A stretch of DNA of 10,771 bases from Chloroflexota bacterium (GTDB lineage: Bacteria > Chloroflexota > Limnocylindria > Limnocylindrales > CSP1-4). Where the stretch lies: the NCBI GenBank assembly GCA_021789355.1, contig JAJYJR010000140.1, positions 1 to 10,771 on the forward strand, written 5' to 3'. Shown piece by piece: positions 1 to 10,648 of this stretch. The notes under the pieces were generated by a model, which made no database searches, was not told the DNA's origin, and worked only from the letters and a program-made list of their open reading frames with translations. Position 1 is the stretch's first letter. Every line of letters begins with the position of its first letter. Made by a program: the position numbers and the translations under genes.

Positions 1-492
1 CCGCCAACGGACCTGCTGGTGCGCGTGACCACGACCCCGGCCACCGCCTCCCCGGCCGCGGGCAGCACGCAGGCCGGCGGGTCCGGCAGCGCCTCGAGCG
101 CGCACGGGGGCGGCAGTCCGGCGGCAGGGGACGGTTCACGGTCGAACGGCAATCCCGACCCGGGCGCAAACGGCAACGTCGCCGGCAACGGCAACCCCGA
201 CTCGGGCGCAAACAGCAGCGCCGGCGCCAGCGCCACCGGCAACGGCAACGGCAACTCCAACGGCAACTCCAACGGCAACGGACCTCCGGCGGCGACACCG
301 GCCCCAACTGGCGCGCCCGCGCCGACTGCGGCCGCGAACGGCAACGCCCTCGGCAACGGCACCGGCAACTCCAACGGCAACGCCGCGACGCCGGTCCCCC
401 AGCCGCCGCCGCCCCACGCCCAGCCCACCGCCCCACCCGGCCAGGTCGGGCGGACGCCTCCGCCGGGCGCCGCGCAGACGCCCAAAGCGTGA
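1..492 (+). CDS. C-terminal low-complexity tail of an unidentified protein (5' truncated)
   Basis: The frame is open from the first base to the TGA at 490-492, so this is the 3' end of a gene that starts outside the window. A GTG at 19 is in frame but has no clear ribosome site and is probably not the start. The visible part of about 163 residues is almost entirely Ala, Gly, Pro, Asn, Ser and Thr. It holds a Gly-Asn/Ser-Asn repeat block (145-382) containing two near-identical NGNPD(P/S)GAN units, then a Pro-rich end. No folded domain, membrane segment or motif can be seen. Tails like this are common in secreted or wall-exposed proteins, but that is inference. The gene ends 7 bases before RR1, so it may share its transcript. 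Function not recognised. Confidence 0.6.
   Translation, partial: PPTDLLVRVTTTPATASPAAGSTQAGGSGSASSAHGGGSPAAGDGSRSNGNPDPGANGNVAGNGNPDSGANSSAGASATGNGNGNSNGNSNGNGPPAATPAPTGAPAPTAAANGNALGNGTGNSNGNAATPVPQPPPPHAQPTAPPGQVGRTPPPGAAQTPKA
145..382 (+). repeat. Gly-Asn coding repeat tract (GGCAAC/AACGGC units)
   Basis: Irregular tandem AACGGC/GGCAAC hexamers sit in two blocks (about 145-281 and 337-382) separated by a Pro/Ala-rich stretch. In the frame of the truncated upstream gene they encode NGN, NGNS and NGNPD units. Such hexamer tracts can change length by slippage without breaking the frame. Confidence 0.7.
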
Positions 493-1211: not shown

Positions 1212-3362
1212 ATGGCGCCGCCCCGGGGGCTCTCCTACCGGCAACAGCAGACGCTCTCGCTGCTGATCCTCGCGGTCGTCCCGGTCGTGCTGGTCGCCGC
1301 CATCGTGCTCGGACAGGTCGATGGGGTGGTGAGGGCCGACGCGGACAGCCGGGCCGTCGACGCCGGTCGGGCGGTCCAGAGCATCCTCGGGTCGGACGCC
1401 GCGTCGCTCGACCGGCTGGCCCAGAGCTACGCCGCCTGGAGCGTTCTCCAGGGGTACGTCGCGGGCCTCCAGGAGCGGGACATCGCCCAGTCGGTCGTCG
1501 ACTTCCAGGTCGCCCAGGGCGGCGTGGACGACGCGGTCGTCATGGCGGGCACGCACGCGATCGGGGGAGGTTCGGGCCCCGCCGTGGGCGCGCTCGAGGC
1601 GGTGCTGGGACGCGCCCTGGCCCCGGGCGGCACGCTCCCGCAGTCCACCTACGCCGACCTGCCGGGCGGCGTCTACCAGGTCTCGCTGCAGCCGATCGAC
1701 CTGTCCGGCCGGTCCGGCCCGGGTGTGGTGGCGAGCGGCGGGCGTGCCGGCCTAGCCTTCGCGCAGCGTCTCGGCTCCGACTTCGTGGTGCAGGCCAGGG
1801 GGCTCACCGCCTTCGACGTCGCCGTCTTCGACGCGTCGGGCGCCCTTTCCGCCGCCTCGGACCAGGCCATCGCGCAGAAGTCGGCCCCGGGCGCGACACC
1901 GCTATCCACCGGTGGCGACGCGCTGGTGCCCCGGCGCCTTCCGAACAACGTCGTCGCGGTCGCGCTGCCCGTGCTGGGCACTGCCGCGGCGGGCACGTCC
2001 GCGGCAGTGGGCACCGTCGTGGTCGCCACCCAGCTCGGCCTCGCCTCGACCATCGGCCCGAGCCTGGTGCCGTACCTCGCGGCCCTCCTGGGGCTGGTGC
2101 TGGTGTTCGCGGCATCGCTGGCGGTCTACCTGGCCGACCTGCTGCGACGGCGCCTCGGGGCAGTGGAGGCCGGCCTCGCGGCGGTCGCCGCGGGCGATCT
2201 CGGGACGCGGCTCCCCGCGGGCGACCGGGACCCGCTGGACCGGCTGGCGGCGTCGCACAACCGGCTCGCCGCCGCGCTCGATCGGCGCGATCGGGTCGTG
2301 TGGCGCTCGCTGGAGGCGCTCGAGGCGCTGCGCCCGGAGCGCGGTCCGGCGAACCTGCTCGGCGACGTGCTCGACGCGGCGCGCTCCATCTTCGAGCTCG
2401 AGGCGTGCTGGCTGCGCGACGGGACCGGCGCGGTGGTCGCGAGCTCCCCACCGGTCCCTGCGCCTGCCGATACGGCCCCCTCGCCTGCCGATCCGTCCCT
2501 CGTGTCGGCCGACCTCGACGCGATCCCCGGCAGCCGCCTGGAGGGCACGGGCCCCTCGGTTGGCTCGTGGACCGTGGCCGACCGTGCCCTCTTCGGGCTG
2601 TTCGCACGCGAGGCGGGTGTGGCGCTCCGCAGCGCCGGGCTGCACGAAGAGGCCTCGCGGCGCGTCGAGCGGCTCGGGCGCGCCAACGAGCTCCAGCGCG
2701 AGTTCGTACGGGGCCTGGGCCACAACCTGCAGGCGCCGCTGGCGCGGATCCTGATGTCGTCCGAAGACCTTGTGATGGCGTCCTCGCCCGACGACGATCG
2801 GCGGCGCCACGCGGAGGCGATCAACGCCGACGCGGACCGGCTCACCCGTGTCGTCCGTGAGCTGCTGACGGCGACCCGCCTCGATGCGGGCGTGTTCGTC
2901 CCCGCGGAGGAACCGTTCGCACTGGGGCCGGCCGTCCGCCGGGCGTGGCATGCGCTCGCGTCGGATCGCCGCCTCGACCTGGTCGATCGGAGCGCGGGGT
3001 GGCTGGCCGTGGGGGATCGGGAGGCGGTGGAGCAGGTGGCCTGGATCCTCCTGGACAACGCCGTCCGCTACGCCCCGTCGGGGCCCGTCCACGTGAGCAT
3101 CGTGCCCGAGGGGAACCGCGCGCTGCTGGTGCGGGTGCGCGACGAAGGGCCCGGCGTGCCGCGCTCCGAACGCGCCCTGATCTTCCGGCGGTTCCAGCGC
3201 GGTTCCACGGCGCGGGGCCATGACGGGACAGGGCTCGGGCTCGACGTGGCACGCAGGCTGGTGCGCGCCATGGGCGGGCAGCTCCGCTACGAGGAGGCGC
3301 CCGAGGGGGGCGCGACCTTCGCGTTCACGCTCCCGGCCGAGCGCGCGTCGGCCCCGGAGTGA
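1212..3362 (+). CDS. Membrane sensor histidine kinase (HK1), partner of RR1
   Basis: A 716-residue kinase. Segments in order: TM1 about 15-36; an extracytoplasmic sensor region about 37-284, whose start (LAQSYAAWSVLQGYV) resembles a CHASE4 domain; TM2 about 286-311; a HAMP-like linker about 311-360; a degenerate GAF-like stretch about 370-480 broken by a Pro-rich loop (413-428); a HisKA dimerisation helix with H504 as the likely phosphorylated residue; and a HATPase_c domain with N616 in the N-box (LLDNAVRYAP), the G1 box DEGPGVP (644-650) and the G2 box DGTGLGL (671-677). The H-box reads GHNLQAPL, whereas SHELRTPL is typical: the residue after His is Asn instead of Glu/Asp, and Thr at H+4 is Ala. 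ATP-binding motifs are intact, so it should still be a kinase, perhaps with altered autokinase or phosphatase balance. The signal sensed is unknown. Confidence 0.93.
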   Translation: MAPPRGLSYRQQQTLSLLILAVVPVVLVAAIVLGQVDGVVRADADSRAVDAGRAVQSILGSDAASLDRLAQSYAAWSVLQGYVAGLQERDIAQSVVDFQVAQGGVDDAVVMAGTHAIGGGSGPAVGALEAVLGRALAPGGTLPQSTYADLPGGVYQVSLQPIDLSGRSGPGVVASGGRAGLAFAQRLGSDFVVQARGLTAFDVAVFDASGALSAASDQAIAQKSAPGATPLSTGGDALVPRRLPNNVVAVALPVLGTAAAGTSAAVGTVVVATQLGLASTIGPSLVPYLAALLGLVLVFAASLAVYLADLLRRRLGAVEAGLAAVAAGDLGTRLPAGDRDPLDRLAASHNRLAAALDRRDRVVWRSLEALEALRPERGPANLLGDVLDAARSIFELEACWLRDGTGAVVASSPPVPAPADTAPSPADPSLVSADLDAIPGSRLEGTGPSVGSWTVADRALFGLFAREAGVALRSAGLHEEASRRVERLGRANELQREFVRGLGHNLQAPLARILMSSEDLVMASSPDDDRRRHAEAINADADRLTRVVRELLTATRLDAGVFVPAEEPFALGPAVRRAWHALASDRRLDLVDRSAGWLAVGDREAVEQVAWILLDNAVRYAPSGPVHVSIVPEGNRALLVRVRDEGPGVPRSERALIFRRFQRGSTARGHDGTGLGLDVARRLVRAMGGQLRYEEAPEGGATFAFTLPAERASAPE

Positions 3363-3397: not shown

Positions 3398-4609
3398 TCA
3401 GGCGGCGCTCACCGCGAGCCGTTCGAACTGGGTGCGGATCACGGCGCGCAGGCCATCGGGCAGGTCGGGCACGGCCGCGTCTGCATTCGCCATGCCGGCC
3501 TGCAACCGTTCGACGGTGTCGTCGATCGTCGCCCGGGCGACGATGTCGGGGATGCCCCAGGAATGGGCTTCGGAGATCAGGTGTGCACGGGTGATCTCGT
3601 CGATCCGCCACTTGCCGCCGACCGGCAGCGCCGCCTGGCGCTGCGTGGGGAGAAAGAAGAGCGTCGGGGCAACGTCGTAGAGCGGCGCGAGCGACAGCGT
3701 CCGTGGCGATGCTCGGACGACCGAGATGTTCTTGGCGTGAGCGTCCGAGTTGGCGAGTGCGACGTTTACGACAGTCTGCTCGAGAAGCCGGATCAACTCG
3801 GCGGGCGCGTCGACGCCGCGAGCGACGAGCAGATCCGCGAGGCGGCGCAGGGATGCCTCTCCGCGTTTCGTCGACCGCGCGTATTTCGCCGTCGGCGGCA
3901 GCCCGAGGACCTGGCAGAGGTCCTCCTGGTGAATCCGGACAACCGATCCTGGTCGAACCACGCGGTCGTAGCGCTCGACGATGACCGTGGGCCGATGCCC
4001 TGGCGGCGTGACGAGCTGGGCCGACGCGGTGCGCGCAACGCCGGCAGCGGCCTGGAGTGCCCACGCTTCGGCGGCTGCGAGGCCCGGATAGCGGGCCGGT
4101 TCCGGCTTCAGGATGTGGGTGCTGAGGGCGCCTTGGAGTGGCAGAAGCCAGGATTCGTCGACGCGAGCGAGGAGGAGCTTATCCTGCGCCCCACCAAGCG
4201 AGAGTCGGACCTCGCGATCGACCTCGGCGACGAGGCGGGGCAGCGCGTCGAGCCGGCTCCAGACGTCGGCGTCCGTGAGCTGCAGGTACGAGCCTGACGC
4301 CGGTGTCCTGCCCTCGGGCATCACCGACACGGCGCCTGCGCACTCCCAACCGATGGCGGCGAGCAGGCCGAAGCTGTCGCCCCGCTCCACGCCATGCTCG
4401 GCTTCGGCCGCGCTGCGGCGCTCCTCCTCGGGCAGCAGACCGTCGAACCAGGCTCGGGTGAACGTGGTGGTCCACACGTCCTCGTTGGCCTGGTCGGCGA
4501 CGCTCAGCCGCGACGCTCCTGGGTATTGGCGATACTGGAACGCGCGGCGATCTCGGACGAGGTCGCCCACTCGCTCGTCGCCGAGCCAGACAGCGAGCCG
4601 GTCGGTCAC
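3398..4609 (-). CDS. hipA: HipA-family serine/threonine kinase toxin
   Basis: A 403-residue protein starting at GTG 4609-4607, which overlaps the hipB stop as GTGA. The frame stays open upstream but there it only runs across hipB. The N-terminal part (about 1-95) fits the HipA N-subdomain-1 fold (WFDGLLPEEE, GWECAGAVSVMP). The kinase part has SLGGAQDK (137-144), where S137 lines up with the autophosphorylated S150 of E. coli HipA; HILK with K168 as probable ATP-binding lysine; NSDAHAKN with D289 and N294; and LYDVAP with D312. The spacings D289-N294 and D289-D312 equal D309-N314 and D309-D332 of E. coli HipA, so the active site looks complete. In that model HipA halts translation by phosphorylating glutamyl-tRNA synthetase; the target here is not known. 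It converges with HK1, with 35 bases between them. Confidence 0.93.
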   Translation of the reverse strand: MTDRLAVWLGDERVGDLVRDRRAFQYRQYPGASRLSVADQANEDVWTTTFTRAWFDGLLPEEERRSAAEAEHGVERGDSFGLLAAIGWECAGAVSVMPEGRTPASGSYLQLTDADVWSRLDALPRLVAEVDREVRLSLGGAQDKLLLARVDESWLLPLQGALSTHILKPEPARYPGLAAAEAWALQAAAGVARTASAQLVTPPGHRPTVIVERYDRVVRPGSVVRIHQEDLCQVLGLPPTAKYARSTKRGEASLRRLADLLVARGVDAPAELIRLLEQTVVNVALANSDAHAKNISVVRASPRTLSLAPLYDVAPTLFFLPTQRQAALPVGGKWRIDEITRAHLISEAHSWGIPDIVARATIDDTVERLQAGMANADAAVPDLPDGLRAVIRTQFERLAVSAA

Positions 4610-4848
4610 GAGTCGGGCCGCCGCTCGTCGACGATCGCGTCCTTCTGGGCGACTACGACTTTGCCGCCGAGCAGCGCGAGTCCCCGCATCGCAACCCGCA
4701 GGCTCACGGGGCCGCCGTGCTCGAGGGCGACGACCGTCTGCCGGCTTACGCCGAGCCAGGACGCCAGTGTCGCCTGAGCCCAGCCGCGCTCGCGCCGAAG
4801 CGCGCGGATCGAGCGCCCGATCCCCGCGGCATCGTAGACCTCGCGCAT
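4606..4848 (-). CDS. hipB: HipB-like antitoxin, Xre-type helix-turn-helix repressor
   Basis: An 80-residue protein that should neutralise HipA and repress its own operon. A Cro/C1-type HTH spans about 10-60 (IGRSIRALRRERGWAQATLASWLGVSRQ, followed by TVVALEHG), and a short tail follows (VVVAQKDAIVDERRPDS). The ATG at 4848 was chosen because GGGGAG lies 7 bases before it. Upstream in-frame starts exist (ATG 4863, ATG 4881, TTG 4905), which would add up to 19 residues without extending the fold. The stop overlaps the hipA start by four bases, the normal antitoxin-first order that allows coupled translation. Regulation is probably by binding the palindrome at 4938-4955. Confidence 0.88.
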   Translation of the reverse strand: MREVYDAAGIGRSIRALRRERGWAQATLASWLGVSRQTVVALEHGGPVSLRVAMRGLALLGGKVVVAQKDAIVDERRPDS

Positions 4849-4914
4849 GTCGGTGCTCCCCATGTCGGACCTGGGCGACATTCCGCTCGCCGGTGGCAAT
4901 GTCAACTGTGCTGG

Positions 4915-4943
4915 ACTTTATTCGATACCAGACCAATTGTCCA
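4915..4943 (-). promoter_or_regulatory. Probable hipBA promoter
   Basis: On the minus strand TGGACA (4943-4938), 17 bases, then TAAAGT (4920-4915) form a sigma70-like -35/-10 pair (5/6 and 4/6 matches). It lies in a conspicuously AT-richer patch. Transcription would start near 4908, about 60 bases before the hipB ATG. A TTGACA at 4905-4900 is an alternative -35, but only a weak -10 follows it. Confidence 0.45.
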
Positions 4944-4955
4944 TCCTGATGGACA
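4938..4955. promoter_or_regulatory. Palindromic operator, probable HipB binding site
   Basis: Perfect 8-base arms TGTCCATC and GATGGACA are separated by CT. Written as TGTCC-N8-GGACA this has the same layout as the E. coli hipBA operator TATCC-N8-GGATA, with one change per half-site. It covers the likely hipBA -35 box, so bound HipB would block polymerase. Only one clear copy is visible, whereas E. coli has several. Confidence 0.55.
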
Positions 4956-5085
4956 TCCCTCACGATGATCAAGATGTCAATCGTGCTTCCCGCCCACATC
5001 CTCGACGTTCGCTGGCGGCACCCGCTCTCGTTCACGCCGAGCGGCCACTCCCGACGCGGCTCCGTTCCGGGCGCACTGCCGCTGC

Positions 5086-5097: not shown

Positions 5098-5832
5098 ATG
5101 AACGCCGCGCCGCGGCCCGTGCGGATCCTGCTCGTCGACGACGACCCGAACCTGCTGGTGGTGCTCGTCGACCAGCTGCGTGACGACGGCTTCGAGGTGG
5201 TCACCGCGCGCGACGGGTTCGAGGCGCTGCGGCGGCTGGAGCAGGGCTGGCCCGACCTCCTGATCGTCGACCTGATGATGCCGCGCATGGACGGCCTGAC
5301 GCTCGCCCGGCAGGTGAAGGAGCGCGCCGACCTGCCGGTCATCGTGCTGTCGGCGGTGGACAGCGGCGACTCCAAGGCGAGCACGCTGGAGGCCGTCGCC
5401 GAGGACTACGTCACCAAGCCGTTCCACTACCCTGAGCTGCGGGCACGGATCCACCGGGTGCTGCGCCGGGTCGGCGACCAGGTGCCGTCCGGGGCGATCC
5501 CGCTCGGACCGTCGCTGATCCTCGACCTGCAGAAGCGCCGCGCCATCGTCGACGGGCGCGTGGTGAGCCTCACGCCCGCGGAGTCGCGCCTGCTCTACGC
5601 GCTGGCCGCCAACCTGGACCGCATCGTCTCCACCGAGACGCTGCTCGCGCGCGGCTGGTCCGACGCGGAGGTCCCCGACCCCTCGTATGTCTGGGTCACG
5701 ATGCGCCGGCTCCGCCAGAAGATCGAGGCGGACCCGGACCATCCGGTTTATCTCGAGACGATCCGTGGATCGGGCTACCGGCTGAGAAGGGTGGTCGAGG
5801 CTGCCTCGCTGACCGACACGGAGCGCTCGTAG
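5098..5832 (+). CDS. OmpR/PhoB-family response regulator (RR2), paralogue of RR1
   Basis: A 244-residue regulator with a receiver domain about 8-120 (D14/D15, phosphoacceptor D58 in LLIVDLMMPRMDG, S85, K107 in YVTKPF) and an OmpR winged helix about 135-232 (WVTMRRLRQKIE, RGSGYRL). RR1 and RR2 share the uncommon segment (A/S)G(E/D)SK followed by AEDYVTKPF, in place of the usual GADDY form, which supports recent common origin. The ATG at 5098 is the first in frame. No kinase gene lies beside it: upstream is divergent hipBA and downstream are the pseudopilin cassettes. The kinase-like gene starting at 10708 is the best visible candidate partner, and control of the cassettes is a plausible but unproven role. 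Confidence 0.93.
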   Translation: MNAAPRPVRILLVDDDPNLLVVLVDQLRDDGFEVVTARDGFEALRRLEQGWPDLLIVDLMMPRMDGLTLARQVKERADLPVIVLSAVDSGDSKASTLEAVAEDYVTKPFHYPELRARIHRVLRRVGDQVPSGAIPLGPSLILDLQKRRAIVDGRVVSLTPAESRLLYALAANLDRIVSTETLLARGWSDAEVPDPSYVWVTMRRLRQKIEADPDHPVYLETIRGSGYRLRRVVEAASLTDTERS

Positions 5833-5990: not shown

Positions 5991-6021
5991 GCAATTCGAC
6001 CTGCAAGTGACCGTCGCCAGA

Positions 6022-6037
6022 CTCATAGCGCTATGAG
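6022..6037. promoter_or_regulatory. 16-base perfect palindrome over the TadE-A1 start codon
   Basis: CTCATAGC directly followed by GCTATGAG; the ATG at 6033-6035 lies inside the right arm. As RNA it could mask the start codon, and as DNA it could be a dimeric regulator site. A shorter palindrome, TGCATGCA (8287-8294), covers the start of the second TadE-A. Confidence 0.55.
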
Positions 6038-6566
6038 ATCACGTGGCACCACATCGATCGCGCGACGGATCCTGTTGCGTGTCCGGCTGCACTCCCGCGG
6101 CCAGGCGCTGGTCGAGCTTGCGCTCGTCTCAACGATTCTCGTGCTGCTGCTCGCGAGCGCCTTTGACCTGGGGCGGCTCTTCTACACGACCATCACCATC
6201 TCTGGAGCCGCCAGGGCAGGTGCACTCCAGGCAGCGGTCACTCCGAACTCATACAAGTCGCAAGACTGCGCGGCAAATGCCTGGGACGCCTCCAACGCGA
6301 TCGTGTGCGCGGTCCAAGACGAAACCGCCAGTTCACTCGTCCATATCACGTACAAACAAATCACGGTCACGTGCCAGGACTTCGCCGGAGACGCCGTAGC
6401 CCCGTGCCCCAGCGCCCCTGCCTCCAACGTTCGCTCGAACGTGACCGTGACTGCATCGATGCCCCTGCTCACGCCCGTCCTGCAGGCGATTCTCGGTTCG
6501 AGCGTGCCGGTAAGCTCATCCGCGCTCTCGGACCAGAAGGCCCTGCCGCCTCCGGTGACGCAATGA
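6033..6566 (+). CDS. TadE-family pseudopilin-like protein, cassette 1 (TadE-A1)
   Basis: A 177-residue protein with a short basic N-terminus, a prepilin-like site RG/QALVE (cut expected after G23, with E28 at +5), one hydrophobic helix about 25-46 ending in FDLGRLFY, and an extracytoplasmic domain to the end. TadE and TadF of the Aggregatibacter tad locus are processed by prepilin peptidase at G/XXXXE sites of this kind. Four cysteines (79, 92, 114, 125) suit two disulfides and are all kept in TadE-A2. The ATG at 6033 was chosen because the open frame upstream lacks any conserved sequence and the palindrome and leader lie there; no Shine-Dalgarno is seen. The protein ends at LPPPVTQ, where TadE-A2 continues into a linker and PASTA-like domain. 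Its stop overlaps the TadE-B1 start (ATGA). Confidence 0.88.
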   Translation: MRSRGTTSIARRILLRVRLHSRGQALVELALVSTILVLLLASAFDLGRLFYTTITISGAARAGALQAAVTPNSYKSQDCAANAWDASNAIVCAVQDETASSLVHITYKQITVTCQDFAGDAVAPCPSAPASNVRSNVTVTASMPLLTPVLQAILGSSVPVSSSALSDQKALPPPVTQ

Positions 6567-7030
6567 CATCGGCGACGACCCACTCGCGATGGCACACCCG
6601 GACCGACGGGCAGTCCCTCGTTGAGTTCTCACTCGTTCTGCCGGTCTTGCTGTTCCTCATCCTCGCGATCGCGGATGGCGGGAGAGGGATCTTTGCTTAC
6701 AACGGAACGAGCCAGGCGGCTCGCAACGTCGCTCGGGTGGCCAGCGTCAACTGCTTTGATCCCAACGGAGTGTTCGCGCCCTGTGACAAGACGAATGACC
6801 CGGCGATCGCCGCCGCGATCGCCGCACAGCAAGTCTCCCTCGTCGGGCCAAGCACGTGGACGGTCACCTGCGTGGACGCATCTGGCAACACCCCGAGCCC
6901 AGCGTGCTCAGTCGGCGACTACGTGAAGGTCACGGTGACGGCCAAATTCCAACTCATCACGCCCGGCGTCAGCGCTGCGTTCGGGCCGGTCAATGTCACG
7001 TCCACGAGCACCGTGCAAGTCCTCCAATGA
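6563..7030 (+). CDS. TadE-family pseudopilin-like protein, cassette 1 (TadE-B1)
   Basis: A 155-residue protein starting at ATG 6563, overlapping the TadE-A1 stop by four bases. The prepilin-like site is DG/QSLVEF (G16, E21 at +5), followed by one hydrophobic helix about 18-38 and the TadE-like DGGRGIFAYNGTSQAARNVA stretch. The outer domain carries four cysteines (64, 74, 103, 115) matched in TadE-B2. The second TadE-type protein of each cassette may take the role that TadF has in other tad loci; that is inference. Tight ATGA coupling suggests fixed ratios of the cassette products. Confidence 0.88.
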   Translation: MTSATTHSRWHTRTDGQSLVEFSLVLPVLLFLILAIADGGRGIFAYNGTSQAARNVARVASVNCFDPNGVFAPCDKTNDPAIAAAIAAQQVSLVGPSTWTVTCVDASGNTPSPACSVGDYVKVTVTAKFQLITPGVSAAFGPVNVTSTSTVQVLQ

Positions 7031-7059
7031 CCACCCGCAGCGCGAGGTTCCTGGAATGA
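7027..7059 (+). other. Ten-codon mini-ORF, remnant of the ancestral TadG start
   Basis: An ATG overlapping the TadE-B1 stop (ATGA) opens ATGACCACCCGC, closely matching ATGAGCACCCGC, the actual TadG2 start in cassette 2. Here the frame ends at TGA 7057-7059, which overlaps the TadG1 ATG at 7056. From this ATG to the conserved GQT codons is 65 bases, against 63 in cassette 2, so the frame is lost. It may now act only as a translational bridge between TadE-B1 and TadG1. Confidence 0.5.
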
Positions 7060-8090
7060 ACAGCAAGCGCGACACGCAGCGACGTGAACGTGGCCAGACG
7101 CTCGTGGTATTCGCGCTCTCGCTTGTCGTGATCATCGCGTCCGTGGGCCTTGTGCTCGACGCGGGTGGAGCGTACGCGCAGCAGCGCAATCAACAGCGAG
7201 CGGCCGATCTCGCCGCGCTGGCGGGGGCTACGGCGGAAACCAGCTGCTGGCAGGGCTGCTCAGGAGGAGCGACTCCCCGCCAGGCGATGATCAACGCCGC
7301 GGTGGCGTCCGCCAGTGTTAACGGTTTCACGGCGACTGAGGTCGGGGTCAACATCCCTCCACTCTCGGGCAAGTATGCCGGTACCGGTGGCGATTGCTCA
7401 TCCATCGCGTCGATGCCGTGCTGGATCGAGGTCGTGATCACCCGCAATCACCAGAATGGGTTCGCGTCGGTAGTCGGACAGGCTTCGTGGCCGGTAACAG
7501 GCCGGGGCGTGGCTGTCGGCGGCGTGGCAAACGCCGTCACGAATGGGATTGCACCGATCATGTTCAACAAGAAGGCAGTCGTTGACCCTGACCACGGCAC
7601 AACGAAGCCCTACTGCGACCCGCAATCCAAGAAGTGCAGTCCGAACGGCGCGGTTCCCGTGGAAGACACTCAATTCAACTGGACGAACTTCTGTGCATCA
7701 CCCAGCGGCTGTAATCTGAGCTCCAGCAGCGCCAAGACCATCATCGCGGGCGGAGGCATTCCGTTCACCGTCTATCTGGGTATGAGCTTGGGTCCCAACA
7801 ACGATGGCCAGCACACGTCGGTATGTCACACCTTGGTCCAGACCTACCCCCAAGGAGCTGATCTCCCAGTTGCGATCGAAGTGCCGGATCCGAATAATCC
7901 CGGCAACGCGATCTTGGTGGGGTTCTGGATCTGGCACTTCGATGCCGCGAACACCAACTGCCAAGGTAAGGATGGCGAGCTGCTGAAGGGCTATTTTGTC
8001 CAGGACGTCGCAAACACGCTTCCCCTCACGATTACACCCGACGGAGGTAAGGCGACCACTGGCGAGTTCATCGCCAATCTCGTCGAGTAG
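7056..8090 (+). CDS. TadG-like pilus-assembly protein, cassette 1 (TadG1)
   Basis: A 344-residue protein with a basic N-terminus, one membrane helix about 13-36, and the family signature GLVLDAGGAYAQQRNQQRAA followed by DLAALAGAT, typical of TadE/G-like Flp pilus-assembly proteins. A large extracytoplasmic part follows. After the G in RG/QTLVVF the +5 residue is Val, not Glu, so prepilin cutting is doubtful. Ten cysteines are present (64, 68, 114, 122, 187, 194, 213, 219, 257, 302); the last eight match TadG2, and the CWQGC pair is unique to this copy. No von Willebrand A domain is evident. The start at ATG 7056 has GAGG (7044-7047) at 8 bases; the older start at 7027 is out of frame. By eye 33 of 47 residues from GQT onward match TadG2. 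Confidence 0.88.
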   Translation: MNSKRDTQRRERGQTLVVFALSLVVIIASVGLVLDAGGAYAQQRNQQRAADLAALAGATAETSCWQGCSGGATPRQAMINAAVASASVNGFTATEVGVNIPPLSGKYAGTGGDCSSIASMPCWIEVVITRNHQNGFASVVGQASWPVTGRGVAVGGVANAVTNGIAPIMFNKKAVVDPDHGTTKPYCDPQSKKCSPNGAVPVEDTQFNWTNFCASPSGCNLSSSSAKTIIAGGGIPFTVYLGMSLGPNNDGQHTSVCHTLVQTYPQGADLPVAIEVPDPNNPGNAILVGFWIWHFDAANTNCQGKDGELLKGYFVQDVANTLPLTITPDGGKATTGEFIANLVE

Positions 8091-8289: not shown

Positions 8290-9153
8290 ATGCATGCAAA
8301 CGCGTTCCCACCGCGGCCACGAGGGCGCCGTCGCCAACTGTCGAAGGGCCAGGCCCTTGCCGAGTTCGCCCTTGTGTCCGTGGTGCTCGCCTTCCTGCTC
8401 GCCACGGTCTTCGACTTCGCGCGCGTCTTCTACGCGAAGATCACCGTCGAGAACGGCGCGAGAGCGGGGGCACTGGTGGCGGCCCAGGCTCCAGCCGCGT
8501 TCACGGGCACCGACTGCACCTCCACCAACCAGACTACCGATGCGATCGGCTGCGCCGTGCAGAACGAGTCCCGCGGGTCGGCCGTGACGGTCACAGCGGC
8601 CCAGATCACGGTGACCTGCCAGGATTTCTCCGGCAGTGCCGTCTCCCCTTGCCCGAGCGCCCCGACCGCGGACGTGCGATCCAAGGTGGCCGTCTCGGCC
8701 ACAGTGCCGTTGCTCACGCCGATCATGCAGGCACTCTTCGGCGCCTCGCTGCCCGTGAGCGCGTCCGCACTCTCCGACCAGCAAGCCCTCCCAACCCCGA
8801 ACAGCTCGTACGCCCCACCGACGGCGAGCCCGACCCCATCTCCCTCGCCGACGGCGAGCCCTACGCCCAGCGCGACTGCCACGACCAACCCCTGCCAGCC
8901 TGGGCAGGCACCGGTCCCGGACCTCGTGATAGGAGCGGGCGGCCATAACACGAGTGAGACGGTGGCCGAGGCGCGCAACGAATGGGCGACCGCAGGCTTC
9001 TCCACGAGCCAGTTCTTCCCGGCATCCTCGAATGGGGTCGACAACAAGCAGGTGACCGGGCAGTACGCGGACGCCGGGTACACGCAGGCGCTCACGCCCG
9101 GTACCTGCATGTCGACCACCATCAGCGTCTATGTGACCTACCCGGGGTCGTGA
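8290..9153 (+). CDS. TadE-family pseudopilin-like protein with C-terminal PASTA-like domain, cassette 2 (TadE-A2)
   Basis: A 287-residue protein, 110 longer than TadE-A1. Residues 1-168 are the TadE part: prepilin-like site KG/QALAEF (G20, E25 at +5), hydrophobic helix about 22-44, and cysteines 76, 88, 110 and 121 aligned with TadE-A1, including the shared run ITVTCQDF and PCPSAP. Residues about 170-201 are a Pro/Thr/Ser linker with two PTASPTPS units. Residues about 202-286 resemble one PASTA repeat: VPDLVIG near the start, EARNEWATAGF, VTGQYADAGYTQALTPGT, and a final ISVYVTY strand, with C202 and C273 able to pair. PASTA domains are usually found in wall-sensing kinases and penicillin-binding proteins, where some bind peptidoglycan fragments. 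ATG 8290 is the first usable start and has no Shine-Dalgarno site. Operon leader of cassette 2. Confidence 0.88.
   Translation: MHANAFPPRPRGRRRQLSKGQALAEFALVSVVLAFLLATVFDFARVFYAKITVENGARAGALVAAQAPAAFTGTDCTSTNQTTDAIGCAVQNESRGSAVTVTAAQITVTCQDFSGSAVSPCPSAPTADVRSKVAVSATVPLLTPIMQALFGASLPVSASALSDQQALPTPNSSYAPPTASPTPSPSPTASPTPSATATTNPCQPGQAPVPDLVIGAGGHNTSETVAEARNEWATAGFSTSQFFPASSNGVDNKQVTGQYADAGYTQALTPGTCMSTTISVYVTYPGS
8818..8877 (+). repeat. Two 30-base linker repeats in TadE-A2
   Basis: CCGACGGCGAGCC occurs at 8818-8830 and 8848-8860, exactly ten codons apart, giving PTASPTPSPS then PTASPTPSAT. This is a small in-frame duplication in the linker before the PASTA-like domain. Confidence 0.7.
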
Positions 9154-9158
9154 GAGCC

Positions 9159-9611
9159 ATGAAGATCCCGAGGGTTACCCACCGTGGGCCGCAGGGGCAG
9201 TCACTTGTCGAGTTCTCGCTGGTCCTGCCCGTCCTGCTCCTGCTCGTGTTCGCACTCATCGACGGGGGACGCGCCATCTTCGCCTACAACCAGATGTCGC
9301 AGGCAACGCGCAATGTCGCGCGCGTGGCGAGCGTCACCTGCTTCCAGACCACCGTTCGTTGCGACTCGTCGACGTCCGGGACCCCCATCACGTCCGCCAT
9401 CGCCGCGCAGGCGGCAGGACTCCAGGGGCCCGTCACATGGACGGTGACATGTGTCGATCCAGTAACAGACGCCGCCGCCAGCCCGTGTGTCGTCGGCGAC
9501 CTCGTGAAGGTCAACATCACGTCCCAGTTCAGCCTGATCACGCCGTTCGTCGCGCAGGCGTTCGGCGCCGTCAACGTCGGTTCGACCAGCGAGCAGGAGA
9601 TCCTGCAATGA
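9159..9611 (+). CDS. TadE-family pseudopilin-like protein, cassette 2 (TadE-B2)
   Basis: A 150-residue counterpart of TadE-B1: prepilin-like site QG/QSLVEF (G13, E18 at +5), hydrophobic helix about 15-35, then DGGRAIFAYNQMSQATRNVA. Cysteines 61, 68, 98 and 110 match those of TadE-B1. The ATG at 9159 is 5 bases after the TadE-A2 stop. An in-frame GTG at 9150 would overlap that stop as GTGA and add three residues, so the exact start is open. The stop overlaps the TadG2 ATG. Confidence 0.88.
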   Translation: MKIPRVTHRGPQGQSLVEFSLVLPVLLLLVFALIDGGRAIFAYNQMSQATRNVARVASVTCFQTTVRCDSSTSGTPITSAIAAQAAGLQGPVTWTVTCVDPVTDAAASPCVVGDLVKVNITSQFSLITPFVAQAFGAVNVGSTSEQEILQ

Positions 9612-10648
9612 GCACCCGCGTCCTCGACGGCATCCGTCGTCGCGTCGCCCCGCGCCTCCGGGACCAACGCGGTCAGACGCTGGTGCTGTTCGCCCTCTTC
9701 CTCGTCTCCCTGCTCGCCGCCACCGGACTCGTCATCGACACCGGCGGCGCCTGGTCACAGGAGCGCAACCAGCAGAAGGCGGCTGATACTGCTGCGTTGG
9801 CGGGCGCCACGGTCGAAGCGAACGGCGGACTCCGCACGGCGATCATCGCCGCGGCGGTCGCCTCCGCGCAGGTCAACGGCTACTCGTCGTCAGAGGTGCA
9901 GGTGAACATCCCTCCGACGCAGGGCGCGTATGCGCCGGGGGGCAGCCAGTCCGGGCCGCTGAGCACGAACGACTGCTCGACAGCGGCCGCCACGCCCTGC
10001 TGGATCGAAGTGATCGTCAACCGCGCCCACAGCAACGCGTTCGCGTCCATCGTCGGACAGCCGTCATGGCCTGTGAGCGCGCGTGCCGTTGCGGTGGGGG
10101 GCTTTGCGAACGGGGCCAACAATGCGGCTCCCATCCAGTTCAACTACAAGGCCGTGGGTCAGTCCGATCGAGGCAACGAGAAGAGCTACTGCGATCCGCA
10201 AGGCGGCCCCAATTGCCCGCCGAACACTTCGTTCCCTTTGATGGCGAACCAGTTCGCATGGACGACGTTCTGCGTCAACCATCCCCAGAACTGCAACGTG
10301 GACGCCAGCACGGCGAAAGCCATCATCACCGGTGGCGGGTTCTCGTACACGGTCGACCTCGGGATGTATCTCGGCCCGAACAACCACGGCCAGATGTCAG
10401 ACGTCTGCAAGACCCTCGTCGCCCAGTACCCGAGCGGCGCGGACCTCCCGGTCGCGATCAGCGACGATAACGGGATCCTGATCGGGTTCTGGGTCTGGCA
10501 TTTCGACCCCAGCGAGACCTCCTGCGACGGTCAGATCACGCTCGGCGGCTGGTTCGTGGACAACATCACGGCCAGCCTGCCCCTGACCATCGACGCTGGC
10601 GGCAACAAGTCCACCTACGGGCAGCCGGTGGTTCGGCTGGTGGAGTAG
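9608..10648 (+). CDS. TadG-like pilus-assembly protein, cassette 2 (TadG2)
   Basis: A 346-residue protein with a basic N-terminus, membrane helix about 23-44 and the TadE/G-like signature GLVIDTGGAWSQERNQQKAA. The long extracytoplasmic region has eight cysteines (123, 131, 195, 203, 222, 229, 267, 306), all matched in TadG1. Shared blocks include CWIEV, SWPVSARAVAVGG (SWPVTGRGVAVGG in TadG1), YCDPQ, GPNN, GADLPVAI and GFW-WHFD. The +5 residue after RG/QTLVLF is Leu, so it is probably not cut as a prepilin. The start at ATG 9608 overlaps the TadE-B2 stop and has AGGAG (9595-9599) at 8 bases, so it is well defined and serves as the reference for judging the altered TadG1 start. Confidence 0.88.
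   Translation: MSTRVLDGIRRRVAPRLRDQRGQTLVLFALFLVSLLAATGLVIDTGGAWSQERNQQKAADTAALAGATVEANGGLRTAIIAAAVASAQVNGYSSSEVQVNIPPTQGAYAPGGSQSGPLSTNDCSTAAATPCWIEVIVNRAHSNAFASIVGQPSWPVSARAVAVGGFANGANNAAPIQFNYKAVGQSDRGNEKSYCDPQGGPNCPPNTSFPLMANQFAWTTFCVNHPQNCNVDASTAKAIITGGGFSYTVDLGMYLGPNNHGQMSDVCKTLVAQYPSGADLPVAISDDNGILIGFWVWHFDPSETSCDGQITLGGWFVDNITASLPLTIDAGGNKSTYGQPVVRLVE

What the first reader, a model, noticed from the sequence alone, without database searches (positions are those of the whole stretch)
8290..9153. PASTA-like domain joined to a TadE pseudopilin in only one copy
TadE-A1 stops at SDQKALPPPVTQ, while TadE-A2 continues from SDQQALPTP into a PTASPTPS linker and an 85-residue PASTA-like domain. 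This would place a wall-binding type module on a pseudopilin, suggesting a role in anchoring or substrate contact. I know of no standard tad protein with this layout.
Basis: partly seen in the sequence, partly recalled or inferred. Interest (0 to 1): 0.7.

Follow-up and report, generated by a model that had tools for sequence, protein, structure and literature searches.

The report
PASTA-like cap on Tad minor pilin
A bacterial pilus subunit here carries an extra compact domain, folded like the PASTA domains of wall-sensing proteins, on a flexible arm; related bacteria carry many such subunits with exchangeable end domains, which probably serve as heads that touch or grip something.

Summary

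The layout is not a one-off: 54 database relatives keep it. In 22 regions, which are not a random sample, 37 of 45 TadE-TadE-TadG trios have a PASTA and/or PKD cap on the first TadE. The capless copy is the exception, and a tree suggests that it lost the cap. All 90 TadE proteins of these trios have Glu at +5 of the prepilin site and none of the 45 TadG-like ones does, as expected of a pilus-tip complex.

Best reading: a modular Tad minor pilin showing an exchangeable head at the pilus tip, comparable to PilB, CpaL and Kil tips. Wall binding is untested. New variant of a known kind.

The parts
8290..9153 (+). TadE-A2: TadE minor pilin with linker and PASTA-like cap (287 aa)
   Evidence: ORF; PF07811 E 2.6e-10; 54 aligned relatives with the same layout
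8347..8364 (+). Predicted prepilin peptidase site G20|QALAE25 (Glu at +5 of the mature protein)
   Evidence: sequence; Glu at +5 in 45 of 45 TadE-A genes of the trios; cleavage is inferred
8791..8892 (+). Pro/Thr/Ser-rich linker, residues 168-201
   Evidence: composition; pLDDT under 50 at residues 179-198
8893..9150 (+). PASTA-like cap, residues 202-287; Cys202 and Cys273 may form a disulfide
   Evidence: pLDDT 91.2; PASTA matches; profile link to PASTA on P0101 and P0133; 2 Cys in each of 21 PASTA caps
9159..9611 (+). TadE-B2, short TadE minor pilin, second gene of trio 2
   Evidence: PF07811 E 1.6e-16
9608..10648 (+). TadG-like protein G2, third gene of trio 2; no Glu at +5
   Evidence: PF13400 E 6.4e-10
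6033..6566 (+). TadE-A1, capless paralogue, first gene of trio 1 (start codon uncertain)
   Evidence: PF07811 E 9e-11; 57% to A2 over 154 residues
6563..7030 (+). TadE-B1, second gene of trio 1, overlaps the stop of A1
   Evidence: PF07811 E 5.2e-13; 59% to B2
7056..8090 (+). TadG-like protein G1, third gene of trio 1
   Evidence: PF13400 E 9.6e-10; 54% to G2
5098..5832 (+). Response regulator upstream of trio 1, 69% identical over 230 residues to the one upstream of the L001 trio; possible regulator
   Evidence: PF00072 and PF00486; role inferred

Best explanation
The protein is a modular minor pilin of a Tad (type IVc) pilus. Supported by computation here: a prepilin site, a TadE pilin part, a disordered linker, a PASTA-like cap, and a place as first gene of a TadE-TadE-TadG trio that recurs in class-mates with exchangeable caps (PASTA, PKD or both). 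Inferred: the prepilin peptidase cleaves after Gly20; the three proteins form a complex that starts the pilus and sits at its tip, with the TadG-like protein, which lacks Glu5, uppermost; the cap hangs outside on its linker, held by a Cys202-Cys273 disulfide, and binds a ligand (wall polymer, glycan or protein) on a surface or another cell. The window has two such trios, so the cell could make two kinds of tip, one with and one without the cap.
For: Cap on the first TadE in 37 of 45 trios, with PASTA, PKD or both in the same place. Up to three trios side by side with different caps, e.g. L035 PASTA, PKD, PASTA. Glu at +5 in 45 of 45 A and 45 of 45 B genes, 0 of 45 TadG-like; a review says tip complexes are capped by a subunit lacking Glu5 (PMC10191384, passages). 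T2SSE ATPase in 6 of 6 class-mate genomes, weak Flp pilin hits on the same contig as an ATPase in 5 of 6. PilB, CpaL and the Kil tips give precedents. Two cysteines in each of 21 PASTA caps; the Kil tips also have predicted disulfides.
Against: No binding, localisation or complex data. The same review's table lists TadG among membrane components, not pilus subunits. In the Kil tips the variable head is described on the TadG-like KilN, not on the TadE-like protein. The Flp hits are all below Pfam's cut-off, and G015 has none. The regions were chosen, not random. My PASTA profile was trained on relatives, and Pfam finds PASTA in only 5 of 22 such proteins. The window itself shows no Tad machine genes, and no genome is held for it.
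Confidence: 0.55

Rival explanations
1. The cap is a spacer or stabilising unit of the tip, disulfide-locked, without a ligand of its own; the head that binds is the TadG-like protein.
For: In the Kil tips the extremity is the TadG-like KilN. The TadG-like proteins here are about 345 aa, with only PF13400 near the start recognised. A1 does without the cap.
Against: Caps are swapped between unrelated folds, PASTA and PKD, and come in one to three copies, which suits a displayed module better.
Confidence: 0.2
2. One reading: the cap binds the cell's own peptidoglycan and anchors the pseudopilin or the pilus base in the wall.
For: PASTA fold; PknB PASTA binds muropeptides and is needed for localisation (PMC3145798, passages).
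Against: PKD domains take the same place in 14 of 45 trios alone, so wall binding is not what the place requires. The cap is far from PF03793. Prepilin site and Glu5 point to a filament subunit.
Confidence: 0.15
3. The genes make a secretion pseudopilus rather than a pilus, and the cap contacts the exported substrate.
For: TadE proteins are called pseudopilins (reference title in PMC10191384); T2SSE ATPases are present.
Against: Flp-like pilins lie on the same contig as an ATPase in 5 of 6 class-mates. I recognised no substrate gene in the window.
Confidence: 0.08

Closest known systems
Kil tips of Myxococcus xanthus (KilL-KilM-KilN; PMC12075869: abstract, section 8 and passages seen)
   Same: Trios of TadE/TadF/TadG-like minor pilins in several paralogous sets, with variable exposed domains and predicted disulfides.
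   Different: There the extremity is formed by KilN (TadG-like); here the swapped cap is on the first TadE. 'PASTA', 'PKD' and 'Chloroflex' do not occur in that paper's main text.
PilB and other modular type IV pilins (PMC8179133, passages seen)
   Same: A pilin part with a grafted module joined by a linker.
   Different: vWA or lectin modules in PilB and PilC; the census started from IPR012902, which this protein does not match. 'PASTA' and 'TadE' do not occur in the main text.
CpaL of Caulobacter crescentus (PMC12607857, passages seen)
   Same: Tad-pilus minor pilin fused to a functional domain, predicted at the tip with two further minor pilins.
   Different: vWA domain on a TadG orthologue; single system rather than tandem trios.
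PASTA domains of PknB, StkP, PBP1, PBP2x and PonA2
   Different: Below Pfam detection, a longer loop after the first strand, a cysteine pair, one copy on a pilin.

Membership tests
PASTA domain (PF03793) | Score over Pfam's gathering cut-off | tested here: not met
   No hit for the protein or the cap; 0 of 56 family members at E<=1. I therefore call it PASTA-like, not a PF03793 member.
PASTA domain (PF03793) | PASTA fold (strand, helix, strands) | tested here: met
PASTA domain (PF03793) | Common descent with recognised PASTA domains | tested here: met
   Cap profile hits PASTA stretches of P0101 (49.1 bits) and P0133 (31.1), best of 1560 shuffles 7.7. Against: only 4.7 bits on P0112, and no hit at E<=1 on the kinase-type PASTA of L002.
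PASTA domain (PF03793) | Binding of peptidoglycan fragments (shown for some members) | not testable with these tools
   No binding data
TadE (PF07811) | Score over the gathering cut-off | tested here: met
   40.7 bits against 22.9
Modular type IV pilin (as defined in PMC8179133) | N-terminal IPR012902 motif (N_methyl, PF07963, recalled) | tested here: not met
   PF07963 is not listed for the window protein; 1 of 56 members, E 0.04
[quoted passage not shown]
   cleavage itself is not tested
Kil-type Tad tip complex | Three adjacent TadE/TadF/TadG-like minor pilin genes | tested here: met
   PF07811, PF07811, PF13400 in both trios. TadF as such is not shown: the second gene scores as TadE.
Kil-type Tad tip complex | Variable head on the TadG-like protein | tested here: inconclusive
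   The recognised cap is on TadE-A; G1 and G2 have about 280 further residues without a Pfam family
Kil-type Tad tip complex | Heterotrimer at the pilus tip | not tested
   No complex prediction or experiment was run

The most novel reading that the evidence does not exclude
Candidatus Limnocylindria and kin equip Tad pili with sets of interchangeable tips whose recognition heads are disulfide-locked PASTA and PKD domains on TadE pilins. The PASTA heads read peptidoglycan of other bacteria, so that the pilus recognises neighbouring cells, as in a predatory or other cell-contact system.
Probability: 0.1. Interest if true: 0.75.

Novelty: new variant of a known kind. Interest (0 to 1): 0.45.

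Why it matters
What the minor pilins of Tad pili do is largely open. This family offers a natural series of one pilin with PASTA, PKD, both or no cap, often in one locus, so the part played by the head can be tested by comparing or deleting caps. It also shows that a census built on the N_methyl motif passes over TadE-borne modules, and that Pfam's PASTA model passes over this branch.

Tried and rejected
Direct Pfam and NCBIfam scans for PASTA gave nothing for the window protein. One search (E<=10) listed only 25 of 27 families, so I repeated it at E<=1, where all 19 families are listed and PASTA is absent. The cap profile against PDB sequences gave only chance hits, best E 0.049 to an unrelated protein, and the single sequence none. 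Foldseek with the whole 287-residue model gave nothing useful, best E 0.47. Profile-profile comparison with 28 PASTA domains from class-mates (30 loci fetched, 2 dropped because the stretch did not read as PASTA) scored 20.0 over 17 columns one way and 27.2 over 24 columns the other. The 100 column-shuffled controls were run only the first way (best 15.9), and PKD as a decoy gave 14.9. I count this as weak support only.

Considered and rejected: a one-off fusion or assembly error (54 relatives keep the layout); A1 as a frameshifted A2 with the cap still downstream (no second cap in the window); A1 as a never-capped ancestor (the tree puts A1 beside A2 and P0002 inside the capped clade, 96/97). 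The tree's root is only a midpoint, and four rows without the motif (P0065, P0067, P0076, P0022) were dropped, leaving 43.

A first reading of the loci L005-L034 took minus-strand loci on the wrong strand; redone. An earlier count said 0 of 20 out-of-class loci are capped; on checking, one of the 20 (L117, genome G149) is a class-mate, so it is 0 of 19 outside and 10 of 11 inside.

Searches for print (open PMC text only): 'TadE' with 'PASTA domain' 0 papers; 'minor pilin' with 'PASTA domain' 0; 'Limnocylindri' with 'pilus' 1, listing only; two of TadE, PKD domain, Flp pilus 38, of which 20 listed; two of Chloroflexi, Tad pili, minor pilin 35, of which 12 listed.

Full report
What is there. The ORF at 8290-9153 is complete: a TadE pilin part (PF07811, E 2.6e-10) with a prepilin site G20|QALAE25, a 34-residue Pro/Thr/Ser-rich linker and an 86-residue C-terminal domain. 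AlphaFold2 with 56 aligned sequences gives mean pLDDT 85.7 and under 50 for linker residues 179-198. The domain alone (residues 198-287, 47 rows) gives pLDDT 91.2 and pTM 0.81, with the order strand, helix, strand, strand, strand.

Is the layout unusual? Not among its relatives. One search found 40 proteins and one search found 156, of which 120 are listed. P0001-P0019, P0041-P0063 and P0065-P0076, 54 in all, show linker and cap. Of the 40, nine carry PKD domains. Three proteins carry Pfam-recognised PASTA (P0101, P0112, P0133). Four listed hits bear a source name, Candidatus Limnocylindrales, an order of Chloroflexota. The one named genome locus is a Chloroflexi MAG (L001). The window's own organism is not known.

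Gene context. The window holds two trios, TadE-A, TadE-B and TadG-like, at 6033-8090 and 8290-10648; paralogues are 57% (154 residues), 59% (146) and 54% (347) identical. L001 has one trio of this kind, with a capped A gene, and upstream a response regulator 69% identical to that at 5098-5832. I fetched 20 regions from class-mates, chosen because their TadE matched well and the contigs allowed it, and scanned them with L001 and the window. A rule-based count gives 45 trios. The cap on the A gene is PASTA in 16, PKD in 14, PASTA plus two PKD in 5, two PKD in 2 and none in 8, window trio 1 among them; five of the eight (L038, L041, L047, L049, L054) look like a different gene set, judged by eye. 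Capped A genes also occur outside the counted trios (L038:6250, L041:2830). Up to three trios stand in a row with different caps. The cap profiles were trained on relatives. Their best scores on 2250 shuffled tails were 9.8 (PASTA) and 9.3 (PKD) bits, while the assigned PASTA stretches score 15.3-75.9. Pfam, run on 22 class-mate proteins (the 19 with PASTA caps in trios, those two outside, and L037:7889-9052), finds PASTA in 5 and PKD_4 in 6 at E<=0.1, so it confirms only part of the PASTA calls.

Distribution. The window-type cap profile matches 7 of 400 genomes of the phylum at E<=0.001; six are class-mates and the seventh is weak, with a stop inside. How many class-mates were among the 400 is not told. 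A TadE-PASTA profile run on 201 genomes of the phylum gave 30 loci, the best matches. By my profiles, PASTA caps are on 10 of the 11 loci from class-mates and on 0 of the 19 from outside, some of which have other extensions. PF03793 itself is common in the class, 161 of 177 genomes; the listed matches lie mostly in frames of 500-750 residues, which I did not identify.

Tip signature. At +5 of the prepilin site all 45 A and all 45 B proteins have Glu and none of the 45 TadG-like ones does (the script mis-sited a few TadG-like motifs, and I read the printed sequences). A review states that tip complexes of minor pilins are capped by a subunit lacking Glu5 (PMC10191384, passages). Its Table 1 lists TadG among membrane components, which is against my reading, while PMC12607857 (passages) cites TadG in pilus preparations. 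Of six class-mate genomes, six have T2SSE ATPases and five have weak Flp pilin hits, all below Pfam's cut-off, on the same contig as an ATPase and on another contig than the trio.

Only one copy. In a 43-row tree of the pilin part A1 is sister to A2 plus P0002 (96/97), inside the capped clade and apart from the outside group (100/100; midpoint root). Trio 2 is closer to the L001 trio than trio 1 in all three genes: A 47 against 42%, B 54 against 43%, G 56 against 48%. The simplest reading is that A1 lost its cap. P0077, capless and on a 757-base contig, may be a second loss or a fragment.

Mechanism. Best reading: a modular Tad minor pilin that shows an exchangeable head at the pilus tip, by analogy with the Kil tips (PMC12075869: abstract, section 8, passages), PilB (PMC8179133, passages) and CpaL (PMC12607857, passages). 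Two cysteines in each of the 21 PASTA caps of the trios suggest a disulfide, which is not shown. Wall binding remains possible, since the PASTA region of PknB binds muropeptides (PMC3145798, passages), but nothing here tests it.

Novelty. Modular pilins and variable Tad tips are known. I found no paper joining TadE, or minor pilins, with PASTA domains in the searches named, which cover open PMC text only. The variant is new in its carrier (TadE), its head (a divergent PASTA-like domain) and in tandem trios with swapped heads.

Noticed in passing
3401-5035 (-) and 4606-4905 (-): A HipA-like gene (PF07804 E 9.2e-39, PF13657 E 4.3e-16) and, overlapping its upstream part in another frame, a small helix-turn-helix ORF (PF01381 E 3.7e-06): HipBA-like pair between two response regulator genes.
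   Followed up: partly
500-1201, 1212-3362, 5098-5832: Two OmpR-type response regulators and a histidine kinase with HAMP; the second regulator is 69% identical to the one upstream of the L001 trio, so it may control the pilus tip genes.
   Followed up: partly
6000-8000: Trio 1 has lower G+C (0.58-0.65 in 500-base steps) than the regulator genes before it (0.70-0.72).
   Followed up: no
L037:7889-9052: A class-mate TadE protein with a canonical-looking PASTA stretch followed by a PKD domain (sequence); my PASTA profile missed it.
   Followed up: partly
L101, L102: TadE proteins with three PASTA-like domains in a row.
   Followed up: no
7056-8090 and 9608-10648: The TadG-like proteins have about 280 residues after the PF13400 region without any Pfam family, conserved between the two copies and L001; possibly a second head.
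   Followed up: no
1-492 (+): Open frame, cut by the window's start, with a Gly/Asn/Ser-rich low-complexity tail.
   Followed up: no
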